A stretch of 22,013 bases of DNA from a virus: positions 1-22,013 of IMG/VR virus record IMGVR_UViG_3300010334_000318. The stretch is one strand, 5' to 3'. Within the stretch, counting starts at the first letter, position 1, and the number at the start of each line of letters is the position of its first letter. Shown here piece by piece: positions 7,700 through 22,013 of the stretch. A model generated the notes under the pieces. The model did not search any database, had not been told where the DNA came from, and saw nothing but the letters and a program-made list of their open reading frames with translations. The position numbers were made by a program, and so were the translations under genes.

Positions 7700-9469
7700 T
7701 TGGAAAATACTGAAAACACATATAATGTCTCTGTGTTAGAAAGAAAGGCTCTTGATTTATTAGAGACGTATCAGGGTGCCAATAATTATATCATACGTTT
7801 AAGACAAAAACAGATTGATAACAAAAAGTTTTATCCAACTCGTGCTCAAGCAGAGTATATTATAAATTATCACGAAACATCACCAAAAGTTGCGAAGAAA
7901 TGGGTGGAACTTGATTCTTATTTTGCTCAAAAAATTGCCAATGATAAATTACTTTCATCTGTACCAACAAAAGTATATGTTGAAAAACTTTTGGTTGAAA
8001 AAGATACCGCCTACCATATTTGGGGAAAATATTTTGAATCAGAACAAGTCTACGACTTTTGGATTCCAAAGGTTGCGTTAATAAAAGATAATAAAGTTAA
8101 AGATGTTGTAATTGATTATGAAAAATACTCTCATCGTCCACCACTTGAACACCAAAAAGAAGCAATTAAATCTTTGGTTGAGAATAAAAAGTTTATTCTT
8201 GCCGATGATATGGGTTTGGGTAAGACAACATCAACCATTATTGCCGCTTTGGAAACAGGGGCAAAAAAGATTTTGATTATTTGTCCCGCATCTTTGAAGA
8301 TTAACTGGCAACGTGAGATTGAAAATTATTCAGACAAACCAACATCAATTATTGAAGGTAAAAAATGGGAAGATGGTACTTTTGTTATTATCAATTATGA
8401 CATTATTAAAAATTTCCACGATGAAAAAAAGAAAGGTGATTCTATTTTATTGAAAACAAAGTTTGATTTGGTAATTATTGATGAAGCACACTACATTCAA
8501 AACAAACAAGCCCAAAGAACCAAGTTAATCAATGACTTTGTATCCAATGTTGAAAGGCTTTGGTTGTTAACAGGTACACCAATTACTTCAAGGCCAATTA
8601 ATTACTTCAATTTATTAAACTTAATTGAGTGTCCTGTGGCTAAAAATTGGATGGCTTACGTTAAAAGGTATTGTAATGGTTTCCAATTCCAAGCAGGAAG
8701 AAGAAAAATTTGGAATGTCAGTGGAGCATCCAACTTGGAAGAGTTAAGAGACCGAACAGCACCTTTGGTATTAAGAAGATTAAAGGAAAATGTTTTAGAT
8801 TTACCCGATAAAATTATCACACCTGTTTACCTAAGATTAAAATCAAAAGAATATGAAGCCTTAATGGGTGAGTATTATGATTGGTACGATAAAAATGGTG
8901 ATTCTGATTCATTAACACTTCAGTTTACCAAACTTACAAAAGTAAGACAGGTGATTGCCGAAGAAAAAGTTCCATCAACAATTGAAATTTGTGAGAACAT
9001 TGTTGAACAAGGTAAGAAAGTGATTGTTTTTACTAACTTTACCAAAACATTGGAGATGATATTAGAACATTTTGGAAAAAGTGCTGTTAGACTTGATGGA
9101 CAAATGTCCCAAAAAGAAAGACAATTGTCCGTTGACCGTTTTCAAAATGATGAAAGTGTTATGGTATTTGTTGGGAACATAAAGGCCGCAGGTGTTGGTA
9201 TTACATTGACAGCGGGTGAGGCGGTTGTAATGAATGATTTGTCTTTTTTACCGTCAGACCACTCCCAAGCAGAGGATAGAAGTTACCGATATGGACAAAA
9301 AAATAATGTATTAGTTTATTATCCAATTTTTGACAATACGGTAGAAGGAATCATCTATGACATACTCAAAAAGAAGAAAGACATCTTTGAAACCGTGATG
9401 GGTGACAAGGTAGATAATGGCGATTATGTTCAAGAAATACTAGAACTTATAAATAATTGGAGGCGATAA
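7700..9469 (+). CDS. SNF2-family (SMARCAL1-like) DNA helicase/translocase
   Basis: This 589-residue protein has a full SNF2/SF2 ATPase. It shows an RPPLEHQKEAI motif near 146-156, Walker A DDMGLGKT (169-176), PASLKINW (motif Ia), DEAH at 261-264, TGTP at 291-294, and a C-terminal RecA domain with LDGQMSQKER, VGNIKAAGVGITLT and QAEDRSYRYGQ (523-533). The compact C-terminal domain without large insertions is like SMARCAL1/HARP annealing helicases. Such enzymes remodel forks and reanneal strands, a task T4 gives to UvsW. The N-terminal 140 residues are helical and not recognised. No ATG is in frame near the start: candidates are TTG at 7700 and GTG at 7733, while an ATG at 7725 is out of frame. 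It lies divergent from the gp14-like gene. Confidence 0.88.
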   Translation: MENTENTYNVSVLERKALDLLETYQGANNYIIRLRQKQIDNKKFYPTRAQAEYIINYHETSPKVAKKWVELDSYFAQKIANDKLLSSVPTKVYVEKLLVEKDTAYHIWGKYFESEQVYDFWIPKVALIKDNKVKDVVIDYEKYSHRPPLEHQKEAIKSLVENKKFILADDMGLGKTTSTIIAALETGAKKILIICPASLKINWQREIENYSDKPTSIIEGKKWEDGTFVIINYDIIKNFHDEKKKGDSILLKTKFDLVIIDEAHYIQNKQAQRTKLINDFVSNVERLWLLTGTPITSRPINYFNLLNLIECPVAKNWMAYVKRYCNGFQFQAGRRKIWNVSGASNLEELRDRTAPLVLRRLKENVLDLPDKIITPVYLRLKSKEYEALMGEYYDWYDKNGDSDSLTLQFTKLTKVRQVIAEEKVPSTIEICENIVEQGKKVIVFTNFTKTLEMILEHFGKSAVRLDGQMSQKERQLSVDRFQNDESVMVFVGNIKAAGVGITLTAGEAVVMNDLSFLPSDHSQAEDRSYRYGQKNNVLVYYPIFDNTVEGIIYDILKKKKDIFETVMGDKVDNGDYVQEILELINNWRR

Positions 9470-9519
9470 TCAAACTTCGGCTTATTTATAATTAATAAAC
9501 ATTAATAAAAGCCGACCTT

Positions 9520-11064
9520 ATGAAGAATCTTAAAAATAGGATTGAAGTAATTGAAGAAGATTTACAAAAAAAAGAAGTTAAAAGACAACAAGAACAAAAA
9601 GTACAAAGAGTTGTCGCAGAAGCCAAAAACATTAAGATAGAAAAATTACCCTATTCTTATTCAGCACTAAAACAATTTATTGACCCCGAAACCATGAGTG
9701 TTCATTACAACAAACACTACAAAGGTTACGTTGATAAATTAAATGGGGCATTAAAAGATGATGAAGATTTAACCTTAGAAGAAATTGTCAAAACAATAGA
9801 CAGTTTCAACAAGTTTATCAGAAATAATGCGGGTGGTGCTTATAACCACCAATTGTTTTGGAAAATGTTAACCCCAAAAACAACAAAACCAGGCCCAATC
9901 ACACTTAAAAAAATTAATCAAAGTTTTTCATCATTGTCTGACTTCAAAAAGAAATTTGAAGGTCAAGCAAAAGATAGATTTGGTTCAGGATGGTGTTGGT
10001 TGGTTCTTACAAAAAGAGGAACCTTAAAAATTATGACAACCCCCAACCAAGACAACCCCCTTATGGATGTTGTTGACCAAGGTGGTTTCCCAGTTTTAGG
10101 TTTGGATTTATGGGAACACGCATATTATCTAAGATATAGAAATAGAAAAGACGAATACATAAAAAACTTTTGGAGAGTTGTTAATTGGGACTACGTAGAA
10201 TCAGAACTTTCAAGAAAGTTAGATAAAACCGTTAAAGAATCTACAAGCGCCAAAGAATTTTTAACCGAAGCTGTTAAAAGTGAACCTTGTTCAACCCAAG
10301 ATAAAATGGCATCAAAGTTATTGTTTAATACAAACAGAGATGTTCTTAATCTTTACAAAAACGCCATCATGCAAATTTTGAAAGAGACATTTGCCGATAG
10401 ATACTACAACAAAGATGAATATGCAAAAGGACAAATGTCGGGTGTATACAATTTGGAAGGTGAAGGTAGGTCAGTAATCAATTACTTGAATACAAACTAC
10501 AGTGCATTTTGTGTATTGAAAAAAGATATAAACAAATATCTTACAAAGGTTGGTGAAGAACCAATAATTTTTTCAGGAAAAACACCAAGAGAACAAGTTA
10601 TTGAAATGGCAAGAATGTTGAAAGTTCTAAACAAAGTTAAGTTTAGAGTATTCTCATTGGAGTCCGAAACATTTAAAACAATTATGAGTGTGATGGGTGT
10701 AACATCAGACAAAGGTAATAAAACTGAAGATGCTGTTGTTGAAAAACTTAAAAAACAATTTGGTGATGAAAATGTGACTCGTATTGGGGAACTTGGAAAT
10801 AAAGAGGATATGATGACGGGTGTTGATGTTAAGATTATGATTGATGGTGTTGAAAAAACCGCACAGGTAAAACCATTCAGTTACATAACAAGAAACGATG
10901 ACATGTATAAAGTTGACGGAACCGCAAATGTTAAAAAATATCAAACAAATTGGATGATTTTTATGAAACGTTTGGATGATATGGTAATCTTTGATAATTC
11001 AAATACAAAAATTATTGACGGAGTTTATTATTTTCCAATTGATGCCAAGTTGTATCAATTATAA
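9520..11064 (+). CDS. fusion of Fe/Mn superoxide dismutase and PD-(D/E)XK nuclease-like domain
   Basis: The product is 514 residues. Residues 1-40 are a charged coiled-coil-like helix. Residues 40-232 are a complete Fe/Mn superoxide dismutase, which converts superoxide to O2 and H2O2. The metal ligands are H62, H110, D196 and H200; H66 and Y70 (second sphere) and W198 are also kept. Q177 in the NQDNP segment and Gly in GGAYNH suggest the manganese type. Residues 250-514 are a separate helical plus alpha/beta domain with E403, D436 in GVDV and QVK (449-451), spaced as E...D-x12-QxK, the arrangement of PD-(D/E)XK nucleases. The frame is continuous, with no second start needed. It begins 50 bases after the helicase and precedes the gp13-like gene. 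The SOD call is firm; the nuclease call rests on motif spacing. Confidence 0.85.
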   Translation: MKNLKNRIEVIEEDLQKKEVKRQQEQKVQRVVAEAKNIKIEKLPYSYSALKQFIDPETMSVHYNKHYKGYVDKLNGALKDDEDLTLEEIVKTIDSFNKFIRNNAGGAYNHQLFWKMLTPKTTKPGPITLKKINQSFSSLSDFKKKFEGQAKDRFGSGWCWLVLTKRGTLKIMTTPNQDNPLMDVVDQGGFPVLGLDLWEHAYYLRYRNRKDEYIKNFWRVVNWDYVESELSRKLDKTVKESTSAKEFLTEAVKSEPCSTQDKMASKLLFNTNRDVLNLYKNAIMQILKETFADRYYNKDEYAKGQMSGVYNLEGEGRSVINYLNTNYSAFCVLKKDINKYLTKVGEEPIIFSGKTPREQVIEMARMLKVLNKVKFRVFSLESETFKTIMSVMGVTSDKGNKTEDAVVEKLKKQFGDENVTRIGELGNKEDMMTGVDVKIMIDGVEKTAQVKPFSYITRNDDMYKVDGTANVKKYQTNWMIFMKRLDDMVIFDNSNTKIIDGVYYFPIDAKLYQL

Positions 11065-11091: not shown

Positions 11092-12207
11092 ATGGTAGTT
11101 ATTGCTGAACCAGAAAGAACCAAACTGTATAACAGGATTTTAAATCAACTTGGTGCTCCATTAAGAGCTGTTGAATTGGAGTTTGAAATGATGGATTCAT
11201 TACTTGAATTATCCATCGGTGATTATACGCAGTATCTTTATGATTGGTTGATTGAATCACAATGGACAACATTGTATGGTATGAATTTGGATACCCAATC
11301 AGTTGCGAACGCTTTAATTAGAAGAAGTCTTGATTGGGAAACTCAATACACTTACGCATATTCTAAAATTGTTGGTCTTCAAAATTCAGGTCCTTGGGTT
11401 CTTAAAAAGGATTATTTTGAATTACAACAAAACGTACAAATATATGAAATACCTGCAGGTCGTGAAATTAACGAACTTTTATGGTATTCACCAGCCGAAC
11501 AAAACAATTTGTTATTTGACCCTTGGTCAATGAATAGTCTTGGTGGTGCTGGTGGAGTTGGAGGACCTGGTGGATTTGCTCAAACAGGTGGTGGTGGAGG
11601 TTACTTCATGTTTTCATCATACGATGTGTTGGCAAGACAACAAGATTTAAATCTTAAAAGAAGAATTATACAACCCGATGTTAGTTATCGTGTAACGGCA
11701 CTTCCTGACGGAAAAAGAGCGGTTATGTTGTATAATACACCTGGTGGTAGATTTGACTTTGGTGATAACGAATTAATGAGGGGTAAAGTTTGGTATTGGT
11801 ATTATGATACAACCGATAATGACAGAGACCAATGTCTTAAAGATAATCCTGACATTGTAAAATTACCTTCAGATATTCCATTAGACGAATTAAATTGGAT
11901 TGATTTAAACGACCCTGCAAGACAATGGGTTAGAAGATGGTTCACCGCATACTGTAAAGAAACCTTAGCTCGTGTAAGGGGTAAATTCAGTGGTAACTTA
12001 AAGACACCAGATAGTGAATTAACTATGGATTATCAATCTTTGGCTACTGAGTCAAAAGATGAGAAGACAATGTTAGTTACAGAATTAAAAGAAAGACTAG
12101 AAAGACTTCGTCCTGAAAAACAAATGGAGAAAGAAGCACTCATCGCCGAAAATTTAAACAAACAATTGAAATTTAGAGCGATGCCTATACCAATTACAGT
12201 TGTTTAA
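11092..12207 (+). CDS. gp13: neck protein (T4 gp13-like)
   Basis: This is a 371-residue protein with three regions. A helical N-terminus (RILNQLGAPLRAVELEFEMM) resembles the start of phage neck proteins. A beta-rich middle (about 110-270) contains a loop of about 20 residues made mostly of Gly (150-170). The helical C-terminus (about 275-370) has DPARQWVRRWFTAYCKETLARVRGKFSG, a P-x-S/G-E-L-T-M-D turn, then a long charged helix. This order matches gp13-type head-to-tail joining proteins, where a W-x-x-x-[YF]-T-x-x-L/C helix and a 'P...t.dg' turn are typical. It lies on the plus strand, opposite to gp14-, gp15- and gp18-like genes. It shares a transcription direction with the SOD fusion and is followed after 3 bases by the next gene. 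Alternative: a different portal-adaptor protein. Confidence 0.6.
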   Translation: MVVIAEPERTKLYNRILNQLGAPLRAVELEFEMMDSLLELSIGDYTQYLYDWLIESQWTTLYGMNLDTQSVANALIRRSLDWETQYTYAYSKIVGLQNSGPWVLKKDYFELQQNVQIYEIPAGREINELLWYSPAEQNNLLFDPWSMNSLGGAGGVGGPGGFAQTGGGGGYFMFSSYDVLARQQDLNLKRRIIQPDVSYRVTALPDGKRAVMLYNTPGGRFDFGDNELMRGKVWYWYYDTTDNDRDQCLKDNPDIVKLPSDIPLDELNWIDLNDPARQWVRRWFTAYCKETLARVRGKFSGNLKTPDSELTMDYQSLATESKDEKTMLVTELKERLERLRPEKQMEKEALIAENLNKQLKFRAMPIPITVV

Positions 12208-15777: not shown

Positions 15778-17451
15778 TTAAGATTCTTTTCTTAATGAGC
15801 CATCATAAAATTCAAATCTATCATGTTCTGTTGGTGTCATTAACAACATTGCTGGTGTAATATTTCCTTTAATTGTTTCTTGGAACATATAACTCATCCA
15901 AGTTTGTTCAAATGGTCTTGCCCATGTTGTTTCTAAGAACATTTTTTTGTTTCCATGACGTGTAACCACTTGTGGCCAATTACAATAATAAATTTCACCA
16001 TCAATAAATGGGACTCCATTGTATGTTCTAATATTTTTGAATCTTGTTTTTGGAGCATTTGGGTCTTGTCCGTGAACAGGTAATGTTGGTTTTTCAGGCC
16101 AATGTTTTACTCTAAAATCTTGTGGTACATTATACCAAGACCATTGTATTCCATTATCACCAAAAAATTCTGAATAATTAAACTTTAAAAAGTCATAGTG
16201 ATATTTTTTTACAATTTCTATTGTATTTTTGTATAAATTTTGTGCGAATCTGTTAAATCCATTTCTACAAACCTCACCTTTATTAGGATAGAAGAACATG
16301 TCATCCTCAAAGAAGAAGTAAAAATCAAATCCATTTTCTTCTGAGTGTTCAGCAATCCATTGTCTACCACCACAAATACCTAAATTGTCTTTCTTAATAT
16401 GTTCAAAACCATATTTTTCACAAAGTTCCGAGTATTTCTCGGTAGTTGATAAATCTGAAGAATTATCTAATAAAAACTTCTTTGGTTTGTTAATAAAATC
16501 CATATCATAAACTTCCATAGATTTCATTAATGTTTCAAATTGGTTTGGACTATTAAATGTTATTACATATAACGCTGAGTTATTATTGTCTAAGTCATCA
16601 TTTAATGTTGTATTTACTGACTTACATTTTTTTTCTAATTTATCATCTTTTAAATCTTCAAAAAATTTACCAAACAATCCATTACCTTCAATTTCAAAAT
16701 AATCAATAATGTCCGAGTGTTTATAACACATAATTGTGAATATTGATTCTTCAGTTCCCATTAAATTTTGTGATAAAGTTGAACTTAATAGGTTATAATA
16801 AATTCCATTAATATCACCAATTAGACTTTTTGGACCACCAAAAAAACCACCACGGGCAACCATATCAACTTTCGTTCCCGCAATTTGATTTATATTGTCA
16901 TATGTAAAACCATGTATTTCTGTATTGGCTTCGTATGGGAAACAAACAAAACTAAATTTGTTTGTATATTTTGATAATTTATTCAGAACTTTATCGTGAG
17001 TAAAATACCCTGGATGTACGGTATTAGTTAATCCAGCGTCAATCCAAAACATTTGTTCTGAATCAAACGAGTCCATAATTTTAGCATCATTAAGTAAAAA
17101 CACTTTAGACATTACCAATGGATTATACAATTCTAATTTCGCTTGTGTTGATTCTGATAACCAACCTGCTTGATTGTACCAATTTGGGTTTGTTCTAATT
17201 TCTTGAATTTTATCATAAAATTCATTTTTAAACCAATCTTGAGAACGGGTAATAAACATCGTATTTTCACGAGTTCTTCTTTCAAAAACAAATGATTCTA
17301 ATTCAGAATCACCGAAAATAATCATATTATTTTCTACTTGTAATAGTTGTTCAAACTTATCTAAATAATGTTGAAAAGAACGTGACCATCCTTCTGATAA
17401 TCCGTCTCTTTTAATATTCCAAAGTCCTGTTACTAAAGTTAATCCGCTCAT
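15778..17451 (-). CDS. two-domain glycosyltransferase (YibB/HtrL-like plus GT-A domain)
   Basis: The product is 557 residues. Residues 1-265 resemble the HtrL/YibB family: a VTGLWNIKRDG start, SRSFQHYLDKFEQLL, WIDAG (137-141, a possible metal/nucleotide-binding Asp), GGFFGGPKS (201-209) and GTEESIFTI (232-240). A linker (about 265-292) leads to a second domain that starts ALYVITFNSPNQFETLMKSM and has FFFEDDMFF with E382-D383-D384, a DxD-type metal-binding motif of GT-A glycosyltransferases. The chain thus looks like two sugar transferases in one protein, which would act in the cytoplasm. The start overlaps the stop of the upstream methyltransferase gene (ATGA). It is the last gene of the glycan island. 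Acceptor and donor sugar are unknown. Confidence 0.75.
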   Translation of the reverse strand: MSGLTLVTGLWNIKRDGLSEGWSRSFQHYLDKFEQLLQVENNMIIFGDSELESFVFERRTRENTMFITRSQDWFKNEFYDKIQEIRTNPNWYNQAGWLSESTQAKLELYNPLVMSKVFLLNDAKIMDSFDSEQMFWIDAGLTNTVHPGYFTHDKVLNKLSKYTNKFSFVCFPYEANTEIHGFTYDNINQIAGTKVDMVARGGFFGGPKSLIGDINGIYYNLLSSTLSQNLMGTEESIFTIMCYKHSDIIDYFEIEGNGLFGKFFEDLKDDKLEKKCKSVNTTLNDDLDNNNSALYVITFNSPNQFETLMKSMEVYDMDFINKPKKFLLDNSSDLSTTEKYSELCEKYGFEHIKKDNLGICGGRQWIAEHSEENGFDFYFFFEDDMFFYPNKGEVCRNGFNRFAQNLYKNTIEIVKKYHYDFLKFNYSEFFGDNGIQWSWYNVPQDFRVKHWPEKPTLPVHGQDPNAPKTRFKNIRTYNGVPFIDGEIYYCNWPQVVTRHGNKKMFLETTWARPFEQTWMSYMFQETIKGNITPAMLLMTPTEHDRFEFYDGSLRKES

Positions 17452-18080
17452 AATTCTTTTCTCCTACAAGTCCAAACAACATTTTCAAATGTATCTTTAT
17501 CATAGATGTTTAAATTATTTTCTTCAGACGCTTTTGATATATCGGAATCCGCAATTTCATGCCAATTCCAAATTTTATTTTGAATTTTTGTTTCAAAGAC
17601 TTCTTTATTTTCGGCATAATCATGAGCCAAAATAAAATCACCATTTTTAATGTATTTTGAAATTACATTAAATTCTCCAATTTTCCATCCACCATCACAC
17701 AATACAATTGTAATACCATCTTGTTGAATATAATCTTTAACTTCTTGGTCAAAATCTATAAACCCATCAGTAAAAATGTTTTCTACACGAATGTCTACAC
17801 CACGAGCAATAATATCATCATACCAAGGATGTCTATTAATATCATAACTTCTAATGTTAGTATTCAAATTAAGTTCATCACAAACAATCTTTAAAAAAGT
17901 TGTAAATCCCCCCAATGAAGTTCCAATTTCTAATATTCTTTTTGGTTTTACATCTTTAATAAAATTATAAAACACTTCAAACGCGCCATGATATTGTTGT
18001 GCGGTGTGTCCTTGAAACCCTGATAAACTATCATTCGCATCAAGGTTAGTAAATTTTGTTATATTTTCTTGTATATTCAT
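17448..18080 (-). CDS. class I SAM-dependent methyltransferase
   Basis: This 210-residue protein has a standard Rossmann methyltransferase core: RILEIGTSLGG (motif I, 48-58, SAM binding), SYDIN with D80 at the end of strand 2 (ribose binding), IVLCDGGWK (125-133) in the strand-4 position, and DFILAHDYAEN (148-158). The 'LCDGGW' plus 'AHDY' pair resembles the cephalosporin hydroxylase/CmcI and Methyltransf_24 type proteins, found in polysaccharide and natural product clusters. It has no membrane segment. It lies 5 bases after a GT-A gene and overlaps the next glycosyltransferase by 4 bases (ATGA), which points to coupled translation and O-methylation of a sugar or glycan. The acceptor is unknown. 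Confidence 0.75.
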   Translation of the reverse strand: MNIQENITKFTNLDANDSLSGFQGHTAQQYHGAFEVFYNFIKDVKPKRILEIGTSLGGFTTFLKIVCDELNLNTNIRSYDINRHPWYDDIIARGVDIRVENIFTDGFIDFDQEVKDYIQQDGITIVLCDGGWKIGEFNVISKYIKNGDFILAHDYAENKEVFETKIQNKIWNWHEIADSDISKASEENNLNIYDKDTFENVVWTCRRKEL

Positions 18081-18085
18081 ATTAT

Positions 18086-18799
18086 TTAAAATCTTACGTG
18101 TAAATTACCTGCTTTATCATGAAACTCAAAACAAGATGGTATGTGACCTCTAAAACTATCCCAATCCCACTTCATTTCAGCTTCTAATGCTGATACACCA
18201 ATATCAAATCCATCAGGGTAATTTCTTATATTATTGTGTATTGAATACCATAAAAACTCTTCCCATCTTCTCACAAAATATCTAAATTTCCAATTGTTTT
18301 TAAACACCATAAATTGTTCATTAACAACGTGAGCTTCATCCCACTTTGTGTGTTCAAACACATGATAATCAACCATTTTTCTATCAAAAAAACAACCACT
18401 CATATTTTTTTTATGGTCACCAATTTTAGAAGGTCTTTCAAATAAAAAATCTAAATTATTCTTTTCCATATGATTGAACATATTAAATAATTTATCCTCA
18501 CTAAAATTTTCTGTCATCCTCCAATCGGCATCATTGTATATTATGTAGTCATACCCTTTATCCAAACAATGTTTTAATGACAAAACTTTTAAGTTTAAGA
18601 AAAATGAAAAACCTGGATTTCCATCATCATATCTGTCTAATTTAAATAAATCTAAATTAACTTTTGGACCAACTTCACAAAGTTCGTTAGTTGTAATATT
18701 AAAATCCGCTGAACATTTTTCGCTATATTTTGTATAACACTCAGAAGCGTTTTTAACGTAAGATTCACCTACAGCTAATGTTGTAAAAATATATTTCAT
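18086..18799 (-). CDS. GT-A-type glycosyltransferase
   Basis: This is a 237-residue protein beginning MKYIFTTLAVGESYVKNA, the first strand and loop of a nucleotide-sugar binding GT-A fold. YDYIIYNDADWR (83-94) contains D90-A-D92, the DxD motif that holds metal and the sugar nucleotide. Residues 112-150 (KNNLDFLFERPSKIGDHKK then SGCFFDRKMVDYH) and the C-terminal segment SALEAEMKWDWDSFRGH are consistent with an acceptor site. No signal peptide or membrane helix is seen, so it probably works in the cytosol. Its start overlaps the stop of the GT10 gene (TAATG), so the two are coupled. The exact family and sugar cannot be named. Confidence 0.65.
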   Translation of the reverse strand: MKYIFTTLAVGESYVKNASECYTKYSEKCSADFNITTNELCEVGPKVNLDLFKLDRYDDGNPGFSFFLNLKVLSLKHCLDKGYDYIIYNDADWRMTENFSEDKLFNMFNHMEKNNLDFLFERPSKIGDHKKNMSGCFFDRKMVDYHVFEHTKWDEAHVVNEQFMVFKNNWKFRYFVRRWEEFLWYSIHNNIRNYPDGFDIGVSALEAEMKWDWDSFRGHIPSCFEFHDKAGNLHVRF

Positions 18800-19782
18800 T
18801 ATGACTCAACAATTTTTTCTAAGAAATTAAGGGTATAATCAAAACTATAATAATCAGGTAATTTGTTATCTACAAAAATTGGAGATTCAATATACTTTCT
18901 ATGTAATGTTTCGTTATTATCAATTTCTTTAACTAAAGATAAAAAGTCATTTAAATCAGTAAAGTCGTGTAAATTAATAAAACTTTCAGGATTAAAACCT
19001 TCTTCTAAAATGTGTTTATTACCAAAAAATATTGGAATTGCCCCACTAAAAAATGCGTGGTATATTTTTTCTTGTAAAATATAATCGGTATTTGTGTAGT
19101 GAATTGACATATTAAATTTGTATTTTTGAAACAAACCTATTTTTTCTCTATAAGTCAATCCATCAATTCTACCAAGATATAAGTGATTTTGCCATTGGTA
19201 TTTATTTAAAGTGTCATCACCCTGTAATGTTTGTCTCCAAGGACCTGAAGAACTAACCATTTTATATTCCGATAATTTATCAAAGACCTCACCCCTAAAA
19301 TCATTATTTGAAGCTTGAGTAATTGAACAAAAACCAGTATTTCTTTTTGATATTACATCAAAATTTCTTTTTTCGGTTAACCAATTTAAAGGACTATCAA
19401 CTAACCTTGCCTCATTGTATAAAGTCCACACATCAAAAACACCTGATGGTTGTCTCAAGTATCTTTCGTGTTCAAATTTATTATATCCCAAAGCCCATTG
19501 ATTTTCATTTGATAAGATTGGACTTCTAAAATCCGCAACCTCACCTGATACATATAAAAATTTTTTATTCTTATCAGATTGATTATGATTTGTTTGTAAT
19601 TGACCTGTATACGTATCAATTTGACTTTCATTGTAATTTAAATCAGAGTGTATTACAATATCAGGATTTATTGGGTCAATAATTACATTATATTTCTTTG
19701 ATAAAATAAATTTGAAATAGTTCATCCAACTATGTTGACCAACATTTGGAAACCCTTGTCTGGTTATTCTAATTGTTTTCAT
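18799..19782 (-). CDS. GT10-like fucosyltransferase
   Basis: This 327-residue protein has the core GT10 (alpha-1,3/1,4-fucosyltransferase) signature: YKFNMSIHYTNTDYILQEKI (221-240), then YHAFFSGAIPIFFGN (241-255). It matches the family pattern 'K-F-x-x-x-x-E/H-N/Y-x-x-x-x-Y-x-x-E-K-x-x-x-A-x-x-x-G-A-x-P-x-x-x-G', with E238-K239 and G247. GDP-fucose is the usual donor. The N-terminal half (residues 1-160) provides the acceptor-binding domain and includes FLYVSGEVADFRSP. The start overlaps the PLOD-like gene by 14 bases, so translation is coupled. The donor would need to come from the host, or from a gene outside this window. The acceptor is unknown. Confidence 0.8.
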   Translation of the reverse strand: MKTIRITRQGFPNVGQHSWMNYFKFILSKKYNVIIDPINPDIVIHSDLNYNESQIDTYTGQLQTNHNQSDKNKKFLYVSGEVADFRSPILSNENQWALGYNKFEHERYLRQPSGVFDVWTLYNEARLVDSPLNWLTEKRNFDVISKRNTGFCSITQASNNDFRGEVFDKLSEYKMVSSSGPWRQTLQGDDTLNKYQWQNHLYLGRIDGLTYREKIGLFQKYKFNMSIHYTNTDYILQEKIYHAFFSGAIPIFFGNKHILEEGFNPESFINLHDFTDLNDFLSLVKEIDNNETLHRKYIESPIFVDNKLPDYYSFDYTLNFLEKIVES

Positions 19783-20473
19783 TTAAAGTTTGTGTTAATT
19801 TAATGGTATTTTCATTATGTGGACCATTATCATGTATAATATAGGCATCCAAATTTAAAAGTGAAACTTCCCCATTTTCTATCTTAACACTATCTTTAGT
19901 GTCTAAAGTACTAAAGAAAAAATCACGTTCTTGGTCAATAATAATATCATCGTGAAGTATATATTGAATTGTCCATCTACCTTGGTCATCAATTCCTGTT
20001 TGATATTCTTTTTCAATAATATCTTTTAGATGGTCTACAATTTTATCTGTATATCCAAAATAAGTACCAGAATTTAAATACTTACTTTCATTTATAGCTC
20101 TTTTATTCTCATACAAATGAGTATAGTTTGTTGGTGGCCATAAACCTTTTTCAGCCCCCATAATAAGACTACAATTTAAAGATTGAAACTTTTCTATAAT
20201 ACCCTCAGGTGATTTAATAAAGTTGGTATCTGTAGCATCTAAAAATAGAATATAATCATATTTCCCAACAATGTTTGATTCAATATATTCTAATACTTTT
20301 ACTGTTTTATAAAAGTATAATTTATCATAATAAGAACCATCTGTAATCAAACCAGAATTTCTTACAACATGAATATCTTCAGGTGAAAAATACTTTAAAG
20401 CATTCTTATAAAAAGAAGGTTCATAATATTCGGGGTAGTCAAATAAAGCCGTTATTAACGCAATATTTTTCAT
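19769..20473 (-). CDS. PLOD/procollagen-type (GT25-like) glycosyltransferase
   Basis: This 234-residue protein has the motif set of the glycosyltransferase domain of procollagen lysyl hydroxylases (LH3/PLOD) and relatives: YILFLDATDTNF with D79-x-x-D82 (metal/nucleotide binding), IMGAEKGLWPP (104-114), YLNSGTYFGYTD (132-143), IDDQGRWT (161-168) and a C-terminal IIHDNG (212-217). The 'AE-x-x-x-WP', 'YLNSG' and 'DDQ' motifs together are distinctive. These enzymes transfer hexoses to hydroxylysine or sugar acceptors; viral members exist in large DNA viruses. No membrane segment is present. It follows the methyltransferase gene after 1 base and overlaps the GT10 gene by 14 bases. The real acceptor here is unknown. 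Confidence 0.75.
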   Translation of the reverse strand: MKNIALITALFDYPEYYEPSFYKNALKYFSPEDIHVVRNSGLITDGSYYDKLYFYKTVKVLEYIESNIVGKYDYILFLDATDTNFIKSPEGIIEKFQSLNCSLIMGAEKGLWPPTNYTHLYENKRAINESKYLNSGTYFGYTDKIVDHLKDIIEKEYQTGIDDQGRWTIQYILHDDIIIDQERDFFFSTLDTKDSVKIENGEVSLLNLDAYIIHDNGPHNENTIKLTQTLNENN

Positions 20474-20474
20474 A

Positions 20475-21113
20475 TTAATTACTTGAAATCTGTTTATAGA
20501 ATTGTTTGATTAAATCACCATCACTATGGAAAATATTGTCTTGTGCGAAAAATTTATAAGGAATTTCATCTTCCCAAAAAACAACAAGTTCATTACCTAA
20601 ATTATTTTCTAAAACTTTATCAGTCTCTTCAAAAACCTCAATGAATGGGTATTTTGGGTATATACAAATCATGTCATCTTTTACATCAATAATTTGTTTA
20701 TGATGAGCATTACCCCTATATTTGTTGTCCCATAAAAACATAAACTCATTATATTTTGATGGGATTGCTATATAACCCTTCTTAGATATTTTAGGTAGTA
20801 ATTCTAATAAATCTGTTGGTGTTATTACATCTTCTAATGTGTGTGAACAGATACTGTAATCAAACTTACCGTGTTCCGCAACATAGTTTAATAACTCAGT
20901 CCAGGTGTTTTTATTTTGAATGTTAAAATCAAAAAATTTAACACCCTCTTGTTCTATTTTAACAATGTCGGCAACAAATTTACATTCAGGATATGACCAA
21001 AATTGTAAAGAAGCACCAATATCAATTGTTTTATAGTTGTTATCTGATATTAATTTTTTTACGTCACCGATTAGGTTCTTAACAGAACCATTATATTGCC
21101 AATGTGTTATCAT
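20475..21113 (-). CDS. SAM-dependent methyltransferase-like protein
   Basis: This is a 212-residue protein with a methyltransferase-like core: TIDIGASLQFWSYP (29-42) in the motif I position, VADIV (47-51) at strand 2, FFDFNIQN (60-67), FDYSICSHTLEDV (84-96) as the usual strand 4 with the following helix, and GYIAIPS (113-119) for strand 5. The glycine-rich loop is poorer (GAS rather than GxGxG), so SAM binding is likely but not certain. The C-terminal part (about 120-212), with NEFMFLWDNKYRGNAHHKQII, has no match that I recognise and may be the substrate-binding side. Its start overlaps the FkbM-type gene by 23 bases, and the next gene begins one base after its stop, so it is part of the same operon. 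Confidence 0.6.
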   Translation of the reverse strand: MITHWQYNGSVKNLIGDVKKLISDNNYKTIDIGASLQFWSYPECKFVADIVKIEQEGVKFFDFNIQNKNTWTELLNYVAEHGKFDYSICSHTLEDVITPTDLLELLPKISKKGYIAIPSKYNEFMFLWDNKYRGNAHHKQIIDVKDDMICIYPKYPFIEVFEETDKVLENNLGNELVVFWEDEIPYKFFAQDNIFHSDGDLIKQFYKQISSN

Positions 21114-21720
21114 ATTTTTTGTTTAAGAATAGTATATCTTGTTGAATTAATTCGTAGGTCAAAGGATGATTTATGTTTCCAATAAGTTCAACAGGTTTAA
21201 AACCCAAGTTATCCATATATTCATAAACAAATTCTTTTGTGGGGGCATTTTGATTGTACTCCATTAAAGATACTTCCATTAGAATACCTTTAGCCTCTTT
21301 AATGATATCTAACCCACCATTTATAATATCAATTTCAGAACCTTGAACATCAATTTTAATTAAATCAAATGTTTGATTGTTTAAAAGATTAGAAAGAGTT
21401 TTAGTTTGTTTTTTTTCTACAATAATTTGGTCATCATCATAAAAAGACGTATTTTCACGATAAATTGAATTACCCGTACATATTGGTTCGTTTTTTCTAA
21501 TGTATAAATCAACTTCTTTTTCAGAATCACTCAATAAACAAATTGAATAATCAACATTAAATGTTTCCAATACTACTTCACAACTTTCACTACCCTCAAC
21601 TAAATAATAATATGAATTTGGAAATATATTTTTAATTTCATTATAAAATTGACCAACATTTGCTCCAATATCCAAAATAGATTTTGGTTCAAAATATTTT
21701 TTAATACTCTCTAAACTCAT
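21091..21720 (-). CDS. FkbM-family methyltransferase
   Basis: This 209-residue protein has the FkbM pattern: SILDIGANVGQFYNEI (14-29, motif I SAM loop), YLVEGS (39-44, strand 2 acidic residue), a GNSIY turn (83-87) and FDLIKIDVQGSEIDII (118-133), the hallmark 'IKIDVQGxE' motif of the family, followed by GILMEVS (145-151). FkbM-type enzymes methylate hydroxyl groups of polyketides, sugars and glycans. The protein is complete and cytosolic. It follows the partial upstream gene by 3 bases and overlaps the next methyltransferase-like gene by 23 bases, an arrangement that suggests translational coupling in one operon. Confidence 0.85.
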   Translation of the reverse strand: MSLESIKKYFEPKSILDIGANVGQFYNEIKNIFPNSYYYLVEGSESCEVVLETFNVDYSICLLSDSEKEVDLYIRKNEPICTGNSIYRENTSFYDDDQIIVEKKQTKTLSNLLNNQTFDLIKIDVQGSEIDIINGGLDIIKEAKGILMEVSLMEYNQNAPTKEFVYEYMDNLGFKPVELIGNINHPLTYELIQQDILFLNKKYDNTLAI

Positions 21721-21723
21721 AAA

Positions 21724-22013
21724 TTATTTAAAATAAACAACACCAGTTCCTGTTAAGTGACCAATGTTTGTAATATCATATTTTTCTTTGGTGATTGAAC
21801 CCCAAAATCTTTCCATTTCAAAATTCAAATGAATATCATCAAGTAACAAATAACCTTTATAGTTAATTGACACCAAATGGTCATAAAATTCTTTTTCAAA
21901 TGTACCATCGTGGTAAGTGTCCAACATAATATATTTTGAACCTAAAATAACACTGTTGTAATTACCGTTTAATACATTATCAATAATAAACTCAGCGTTT
22001 AATGGTGTGTAAT
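21724..22013 (-). CDS. C-terminal fragment of a methyltransferase-like protein (partial)
   Basis: The frame is open to the right edge of the window, so the 5' part of the gene is missing and the ATG at 21925-21927 is internal. About 95 residues are present. The visible part includes FIIDNVLNGNYNSVILG, YIMLDTYHDGTFEKEFYDHL, YKGYLLLDDIHLN and a final LTGTGVVYF. The 'LDTYHDGTFExxF' and 'GYLLLDDIHL' segments are in the places of strands 4 and 5 of a class I SAM methyltransferase, as in other methyltransferases that handle glycans or small molecules. It lies 3 bases before the FkbM gene and is the first visible member of the island. Confidence 0.5.
   Translation of the reverse strand, partial: YTPLNAEFIIDNVLNGNYNSVILGSKYIMLDTYHDGTFEKEFYDHLVSINYKGYLLLDDIHLNFEMERFWGSITKEKYDITNIGHLTGTGVVYFK

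What the first reader, a model, noticed from the sequence alone, without database searches (positions are those of the whole stretch)
9520..11064. Superoxide dismutase fused to a PD-(D/E)XK nuclease-like domain in a phage
One uninterrupted 514-residue frame joins a complete Mn-type SOD (H62, H110, D196, H200, Q177) to a 260-residue domain with E403, D436 and QVK at 449-451. SODs are rare in phages, and I know of no described SOD-nuclease fusion. An infection-stress role (removing superoxide while cutting or binding DNA) or a redox-linked DNA-processing or defence/counter-defence role is possible. It lies between a SNF2 helicase and a neck protein.
Basis: partly seen in the sequence, partly recalled or inferred. 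Interest (0 to 1): 0.85.

Follow-up and report, generated by a model that had tools for sequence, protein, structure and literature searches.

The report
Phage superoxide dismutase–nuclease fusion, probably head-packaged
A family of aquatic phages makes one protein that joins an antioxidant enzyme to a DNA-cutting-type domain, with what look like the phage's own capsid-protease cut sites on either side of the enzyme, so the two are probably packed in the virus head, separated, and injected into the host together.

Summary
The 514-aa frame is real: an intact Mn-type SOD joined to a PD-(D/E)XK-type domain that no Pfam, PHROGs, NCBIfam or PADLOC model names. It is no misassembly. Of 63 homologues under 93% identical, 54 have the same order, with the SOD ligands (54/54) and E403/D436/Q449/K451 (63/63) invariant.

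Of nine glutamate columns at least 90% conserved, only E34, E240 and E250 combine an aliphatic P3 with a free P2, close to the T4 gp21 prohead-protease rule (L/I-x-E|). They lie in the model's two segments below pLDDT 50 and bracket the SOD. Relatives encode an S77 prohead protease and a gp23 with LINE|A near residue 60. Nine SOD-less homologues keep the last site and a leader (short in one); one keeps a scar of the SOD start. The gene shares an upstream motif with several head and tail genes, though not with gp23.

Best reading: a late, head-targeted precursor cut by the prohead protease into free SOD and nuclease, co-injected with the DNA. Cleavage, packaging and both activities are inferred, not shown. 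It is a new variant of the T4 internal-protein kind.

The parts
9483..9489 (+). TATTTAT promoter-like heptamer, 30 nt before the ATG
   Evidence: Present before 17 of the 18 homologous genes printed (L172 has TATATAT). In 157 kb of a related record it lies within 60 nt upstream, sense strand, of 45 of 140 ORFs, against 14 for the antisense form and a mean of 6.6 in shuffles. The two gp23 genes printed lack it
9520..9621 (+). residues 1-34: N-terminal leader (candidate capsid-targeting propeptide) ending V-A-E34
   Evidence: E34 with aliphatic P3 in 42 of 42 fused representatives ([LI] in 38 of 42; V in the window), ten different P2 residues; pLDDT <50 at 29-35
9634..10206 (+). residues 39-229: Mn-type superoxide dismutase
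   Evidence: Pfam Sod_Fe_N and Sod_Fe_C; solved SODs to E 1.1e-60; H62, H66, Y70, H110, Q177, D196, W198, E199, H200 invariant in 67 of 67 unique fused proteins; dN/dS 0.042
10207..10287 (+). residues 230-256: linker with two candidate prohead-protease sites, TVKE240|S and FLTE250|A
   Evidence: [ILVM]xE at E240 in 42 of 42 and at E250 in 41 of 42 fused representatives (strict [LI]xE 37 and 40 of 42); mean motif count 2.26 against 0.77 in shuffles; pLDDT <50 at 238-252
10270..11061 (+). residues 251-514: C-terminal module (helical part plus nuclease-type core), found without SOD in some phages
   Evidence: AlphaFold2 model pLDDT 88.3; SOD-less homologues; homologue P0002 in the 735-kb phage LR756501 (hhalign E 1.9e-12)
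10702..11061 (+). residues 395-514: PD-(D/E)XK-type core with E403, D436, Q449, K451
   Evidence: VIA-align: Hjc 2wcw_D Z 8.6, rmsd 3.3, 103 residues; all four residues invariant in 63 of 63 representatives
7700..9469 (+). neighbour: SNF2-family helicase
   Evidence: Pfam SNF2-rel_dom E 4.4e-31 and phrog_62; upstream in 41 of 41 testable homologues
11092..12207 (+). neighbour: head-tail adaptor (Ad2-like neck protein)
   Evidence: phrog_211 E 2.3e-9; within 1 kb downstream in 43 of 45 testable homologues

Best explanation
The gene encodes a head-targeted precursor of a T4-type phage. The N-terminal leader (1-34) is inferred to carry the protein into the prohead core. The phage's own S77 (gp21-type) prohead protease is inferred to cut after E34 and after E240 and/or E250, releasing a free Mn-SOD (about residues 35-240) and a free PD-(D/E)XK-type protein (about 251-514). 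Both then stay in the head with the genome and enter the cell with it. There the SOD removes superoxide in the first minutes of infection, before phage genes are expressed, and the nuclease acts on host or competing DNA, or on DNA junctions. Shown: architecture, conservation, site pattern, protease and capsid genes in relatives, SOD-less forms, shared upstream motif. Inferred: cleavage, packaging, injection, both enzyme activities and the benefit.
For: (1) Of 9 glutamate columns conserved in at least 90% of 42 fused representatives, only E34, E240 and E250 have an aliphatic P3 with a variable P2 (42/42, 42/42, 41/42; strict [LI]xE 38, 37 and 40 of 42); the one other, E199, has a fixed P2 and lies in the SOD active site. 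Mean [ILVM]xE count per protein is 2.26 against 0.77 (shuffled) in the linker and 3.14 against 1.71 in the leader, but 2.69 against 2.57 in the SOD and 4.19 against 4.36 in the C-domain. (2) T4 gp21 cuts after L/I-x-E, removes N-terminal propeptides of 7-65 residues, and IP propeptides are capsid-targeting (PMC9026906, sections 2.5 and 2.6 read). (3) Relatives encode an S77 protease (5 of 9 large contigs; also phrog_207) and gp23 (6 of 9, one of them cut by the contig end); the 5 gp23 with an N-terminus have HLINE|A or FLINE|A (E60 in the two counted), and Flavobacterium phage immuto has IVSE|A at the like place. (4) The only model segments of 3 or more residues with pLDDT <50 are 29-35 and 238-252. 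(5) All 9 SOD-less representatives have [LI]SE shortly before C257; L302 keeps SINE|MKKIEIEKL, a scar of the SOD start, joined to IISE|G; the tree needs at least two changes for the five SOD-less rows in it. (6) Upstream motif shared with gp21, sheath, tube and neck genes. (7) C-domain fold.
Against: No proteomics or cleavage data. The motif is short and the regions are E-rich. In the window itself P3 is V at E34 and E240; only E250 fits L/I-x-E strictly. P1' at E34 is M in 26 of 42. L063 lacks the E250 site (it keeps E240). Most SOD-less leaders have K-N-E at the E240 place, and the leader of L321 is only 14 residues. The gp22-like protein (named by position and acidity only; no PHROG match) is not clearly enriched in the motif (18 against 17.1 +/- 3.3; 26 against 18.5 +/- 3.6). 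The leader profile finds no sibling among 199 ORFs apart from the fusion genes (best other E 0.29). gp23 lacks the upstream motif in both records printed. In the giant phage SPN3US 13 of 14 mapped prohead-protease cuts remove N-terminal propeptides and the other is the protease's own C-terminus (PMC10052503, passages), so a cut between two enzyme domains has no precedent there. Head genes come from relatives, not from the window. A nuclease packed with the phage's own DNA needs restraint that is not shown.
Confidence: 0.55

Rival explanations
1. An uncut bifunctional late enzyme: the fused SOD protects nearby DNA or the nuclease while the C-domain processes DNA late in infection.
For: One uninterrupted frame, fused in 54 of 63 representatives; both halves under purifying selection, dN/dS 0.042 and 0.083.
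Against: The linker is the least conserved region (mean identity 38%) apart from E240, E250, their P3 residues and C257; the SOD has come or gone at least twice, with the last site kept and one scar; no reason for E34 to be invariant.
Confidence: 0.25
2. Head-packaged, but the PD-(D/E)XK-type fold serves binding or head assembly, and the SOD is passenger cargo taken from a bacterial host.
For: QxK instead of (D/E)xK; the best-scoring cellular SODs are mostly Bacteroidota at 45-53% identity; the C-domain, not the SOD, is the constant part.
Against: E, D, Q and K are invariant in 63 of 63 and align in P0002; SPARDA DREN has D41, Q60 and K62 as catalytic residues (PMC12205087, passages).
Confidence: 0.15
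3. Misassembly or frame artefact joining two genes.
For: One contig (L073) has the halves in different frames.
Against: 54 of 63 distinct homologues are fused in the same order, from many separate assemblies.
Confidence: 0.01

Closest known systems
T4 internal head proteins (IPI-III, Alt) processed by gp21
   Same: N-terminal propeptide ending in hydrophobic-x-E; S77 protease and gp23 in relatives; such propeptides are proposed as a way to bring varied proteins into heads (PMC9026906, section 2.6). T4 was made to package EcoRI and staphylococcal nuclease by fusion (passage).
   Different: Two enzyme-type modules in one precursor with sites between them; packaging not shown; leader about 34 aa, against 10-19 for the T4 IPs; leader similarity to T4 not tested.
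PBCV-1 Cu/Zn SOD (A245R), a late gene packaged in the virion
   Same: Virus-encoded SOD proposed to lower superoxide in infection (PMC7019647, passages).
   Different: Algal virus, unrelated Cu/Zn enzyme, not described there as fused; ours is Mn-type and joined to a nuclease-type domain.
Phage Fe/Mn SODs of the PA5oct group and Vibrio phage 2.275.O
   Same: Same SOD family.
   Different: 29-31% identical, match limited to the SOD part of the query.
A0A6J5L953 'superoxide dismutase' (501 aa, uncultured Caudovirales phage, BFVD/UniProt)
   Same: Foldseek match over 484 columns at 44% identity, and also to the C-domain alone: the same fusion.
   Different: Described only as superoxide dismutase.
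Hjc resolvases / I-Ssp6803I / SPARDA DREN (PD-(D/E)XK)
   Same: Fold of residues 395-514; D...QxK as in DREN.
   Different: No sequence-level match found; extra N-terminal helical part 258-394.

Membership tests
Fe/Mn superoxide dismutase | Both Pfam domains above curated cut-off | tested here: met
   72.8 bits (cut-off 27) and 128.7 bits (cut-off 20.9). NCBIfam Mn-SOD equivalogs match but below their cut-offs (193 against 363 bits)
Fe/Mn superoxide dismutase | Metal ligands His, His, Asp, His | tested here: met
   H62, H110, D196, H200 in 67 of 67 and 54 of 54
Fe/Mn superoxide dismutase | Mn-type outer-sphere Gln in the C-terminal domain (recalled criterion) | tested here: met
   Q177 in 67 of 67; the best NCBIfam match is the Mn model. 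The metal itself cannot be tested
Fe/Mn superoxide dismutase | Dismutase activity | not testable with these tools
   Needs an assay
PD-(D/E)XK nuclease superfamily | Core fold | tested here: met
   best Z 8.6, rmsd 3.3, 103 residues, top rows are nucleases of this fold; Foldseek alone best E 2.4e-3, none at 1e-3, so a fold-level claim only
PD-(D/E)XK nuclease superfamily | Canonical D...(D/E)xK signature | tested here: inconclusive
   D436...Q449xK451 plus E403, invariant in 63 of 63; third residue is Q, a variant described as catalytic in SPARDA DREN
PD-(D/E)XK nuclease superfamily | Active-site residues clustered in 3-D; DNA cleavage | not testable with these tools
   No coordinates returned; needs distances and an assay
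T4-type internal head protein | Phage encodes an S77 prohead protease and gp23 | tested here: met
   In relatives: 5 of 9 and 6 of 9 large contigs; the 22-kb window itself does not reach those genes
T4-type internal head protein | Hydrophobic-x-E site ending an N-terminal propeptide | tested here: met
   42 of 42; strict [LI]xE 38 of 42, V in the window
T4-type internal head protein | Leader shared with other head proteins of the same phage | tested here: inconclusive
   No sibling among 199 ORFs from 157 kb of one relative, 19 kb of another and the window
T4-type internal head protein | Present and cleaved in virions, injected | not testable with these tools
   Needs proteomics

The most novel reading that the evidence does not exclude
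A phage prohead protease acts as a polyprotein protease: it cuts one head-targeted precursor into two separate injected enzymes, an antioxidant Mn-SOD and a nuclease of a new family, with the SOD a removable cassette that lineages drop between conserved cut sites.
Probability: 0.45. Interest if true: 0.85.

Novelty: new variant of a known kind. Interest (0 to 1): 0.7.

Why it matters
If right, it shows bacterial viruses delivering a redox enzyme with their genome, as chloroviruses are thought to do, and a simple natural plan for packing two cargoes: leader, cut site, cargo, cut site, cargo. It turns 'does superoxide matter in the first minutes of phage infection?' into a testable question, because related phages with and without the SOD exist. 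It also adds a PD-(D/E)XK-type family that the libraries searched here do not name, and suggests that other head cargo can be found by looking for conserved hydrophobic-x-E sites in poorly ordered leaders.

Tried and rejected
Misassembly: rejected by homologues. C-domain in cellular genomes: the genome-contig scan confirmed none of 218 pattern matches; it rests on two short patterns. Relatives of P0002 by a direct scan: none confirmed of 15. C-domain profile against PDB sequences: only chance-level matches (best E 0.058). Pfam over 30 members: no recurring family, at most 2 of 30 for any; lowest E 0.0014 in a single member (YcaO_C). NCBIfam for the C-domain: a 54-residue match to a replicative helicase model at E 0.012, 14 of 884 bits, taken as chance. 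PHROGs for the C-domain: E 0.065 to a family without function. PADLOC: none for P0001 and P0002, so a known defence protein is not supported. A second SOD: Sod_Fe_C gives one match in each of 6 of 10 records (open frames of 518-540 aa, as for the fusion) and none in the 4 SOD-less records (308, 76, 35 and 61 kb). Generic search for leaders by [ILV]xE within the first 45 residues: 26 of 153 proteins over 100 aa, too unspecific.

Literature (open PMC library only): SOD with jumbo phage (6 of 6 listed), virion/packaged/chlorovirus (12 of 163), auxiliary metabolic gene and phage-encoded (7 of 7), prohead protease (5 of 5), phage genome and nuclease domain (3 of 3), phage capsid and internal head proteins (10 of 62), uncultured Caudovirales phage (0). 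No listed title or abstract start describes this fusion. Passages of PMC9875498, PMC9405923 and PMC1995217 were looked at: the first concerns SOD of CPR bacteria, the second SOD in giant-virus virions, the third I-Ssp6803I as a PD-(D/E)XK enzyme. MW462191 (H6) looked like a phage SOD, but its neighbours look bacterial.

Rows dropped: edge-cut ORFs and the frameshifted L073 before the counts; of the 80 loci, 57 were examined, the other 23 lying on contigs already held.

Full report
Observation. Residues 39-228 are an Fe/Mn SOD by both Pfam models; the best PDB matches are SODs, several named Mn-SOD (best E 1.1e-60). Residues 229-514 have no convincing match in Pfam, PHROGs, NCBIfam or PADLOC. 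The window is a whole 22-kb virus record.

The fusion is widespread. A scan of IMG/VR gave 460 stretches encoding a relative, of which the best 80 were kept. With the scans unique complete proteins were aligned, after dropping edge-cut ones and the frameshifted L073; 63 of them are under 93% identical in the C-domain, 54 with and 9 without SOD. H62, H110, Q177, D196 and H200 are invariant in 54 of 54, and E403, D436, Q449 and K451 in 63 of 63. Among 46 homologues the gene follows the SNF2 helicase (41 of 41 with enough flank) and precedes the Ad2 neck gene (within 1 kb in 43 of 45 with enough flank), the five SOD-less ones included. Both halves are under purifying selection: dN/dS 0.042 for the SOD, 0.083 for the C-domain, 0.131 leader, 0.118 linker (60 of 101 pairs drawn, 45-59 usable per region, NG86).

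The C-domain. AlphaFold2 on 30 homologues gives pLDDT 88.3. Residues 395-514 match PD-(D/E)XK structures: A. fulgidus Hjc Z 8.6, NhoI 7.9, SPARDA 7.7, I-Ssp6803I 7.6. Foldseek alone is weaker (best 2ost, E 2.4e-3, none at 1e-3). The motif is E403 ... D436 ... Q449-x-K451. A QxK third motif is described as catalytic in SPARDA DREN, with D41, Q60 and K62 (PMC12205087, passages). A homologue without SOD occurs in the 735-kb phage record LR756501 (hhalign E 1.9e-12), with all four residues aligned. BFVD holds A0A6J5L953, a 501-aa phage protein named superoxide dismutase that matches the whole fusion, and a 1113-aa marine phage protein that matches the C-domain in another setting.

In 42 fused representatives, nine glutamate columns are at least 90% conserved. 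Only E34, E240 and E250 have an aliphatic residue at P3 and a varying P2 (42/42, 42/42 and 41/42; strictly L or I in 38, 37 and 40). E199 also has L at P3, but a fixed W at P2; it lies in the SOD active site. The [ILVM]xE pattern is enriched in the linker (mean 2.26 against 0.77 shuffled) and leader (3.14 against 1.71), and not in the SOD (2.69 against 2.57) or the C-domain (4.19 against 4.36). In the 54 fused representatives of the larger set the aligned E34 column fits in 50; of the other four, two have the motif shifted (QIDE, IIQE) and two have an in-frame GTG upstream whose leaders, with LLE|M and LTE|M, the ATG-only ORF call had left out. The only segments of 3 or more residues with pLDDT <50 in the full-length model are 29-35 and 238-252, which contain E34, E240 and E250.

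This is close to the rule of the T4 prohead protease: gp21 cuts after L/I-x-E, and propeptides of T4 internal proteins target them into the head (PMC9026906, sections 2.5 and 2.6 read, further passages seen). In the window the three sites read VVAE|A, TVKE|S and FLTE|A, so only the last has L or I at P3. The relatives encode an S77 protease (5 of 9 large contigs; head maturation protease by PHROGs) and gp23 (6 of 9). The five gp23 with an N-terminus have HLINE|A or FLINE|A near residue 60, and Flavobacterium phage immuto has IVSE|A at the like place. That these are the gp23 cut sites is inferred from position and from the T4 propeptide length of 65.

Natural experiment. Nine representatives lack the SOD. 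Each has [LI]SE followed by S, G or T shortly before the conserved C257, the stretch up to that site being 14 to 45 residues long. L172 keeps both linker sites. L302 reads leader-SINE|MKKIEIEKL-KSIISE|GKSERC: the first residues of the SOD remain as a scar. In the C-domain tree the five SOD-less rows then known need two changes; parsimony with the scar favours repeated loss. A [ILVMF]xE lies within 16 residues before C257 in 62 of 63 representatives; L063 is the exception.

Expression. TATTTAT lies 30 nt before the ATG, and in 17 of the 18 upstream stretches printed. In 157 kb of a relative it precedes 45 of 140 ORFs of at least 80 aa on the sense strand, against 14 for the antisense form and 6.6 (max 14) in shuffles; among the 45 are gp21, the gp22-like gene, sheath, tube and neck. 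The gp23 genes printed lack it. I read it as a late promoter element; that is inference.

Mechanism. Made late, carried into the prohead by its leader, cut by the prohead protease into SOD and nuclease, packed and injected. The SOD would act before phage genes are on, as proposed for the virion-packaged Cu/Zn SOD of PBCV-1 (PMC7019647, passages). The nuclease could act on host or rival DNA, or on junctions; which cannot be told. T4 heads were made to carry EcoRI and staphylococcal nuclease by artificial fusion (PMC9026906, passage), so a nuclease in a head is feasible.

Against: no protein data; P1' is M in 26 of 42 at E34; the gp22-like protein shows no clear enrichment, and the leader has no sibling among 199 ORFs; in SPN3US 13 of 14 mapped cuts remove N-terminal propeptides (PMC10052503, passages), so a cut between two enzyme domains would be unusual; head genes come from relatives, not from the window.

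Origin. The best-scoring cellular SODs are mostly from Bacteroidota at 45-53% identity (80 best of 579). The best named capsid relatives are a Microcystis phage and Flavobacterium phages, at about 40-42% identity. A Bacteroidota host is likely but not settled.

Noticed in passing
L176, L178-L184 (record G001) and window 9483-9489: TATTTAT heptamer upstream of 45 of 140 ORFs, often only 4-6 nt before the ATG: a candidate late promoter with a very short or no 5' leader.
   Followed up: partly
L176:4906-5376, L179:9240-9926 (-), L184:11814-12779 (-), L177:18639-19004: Other proteins of these phages start with short charged leaders ending in hydrophobic-x-E|Q; possible further head cargo.
   Followed up: no
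BFVD A0A8D9CCA0: A 1113-aa marine phage protein contains the same C-domain (Foldseek E 4.9e-18, 23% identity) with other, unexamined parts: perhaps another cargo arrangement.
   Followed up: no
L273, L279, L303: Homologues with an in-frame GTG upstream, so an ATG-only gene call drops exactly the leader.
   Followed up: partly
L073 about 7650: Halves in different frames in one contig, in the linker; sequencing error or a natural split.
   Followed up: no
window 15778-21927 (-): Run of ORFs beside the tail module that look by eye like sugar- or methyl-transferase genes; not searched.
   Followed up: no
L083 (MW462191): Record labelled 'Bacteriophage sp.' whose SOD neighbourhood looks bacterial (beta-lactamase, LysR, efflux).
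   Followed up: no
L068, L163: The Ad2 gene lies about 1.1-1.2 kb downstream instead of about 30 nt: something is inserted behind the SOD-nuclease gene.
   Followed up: no
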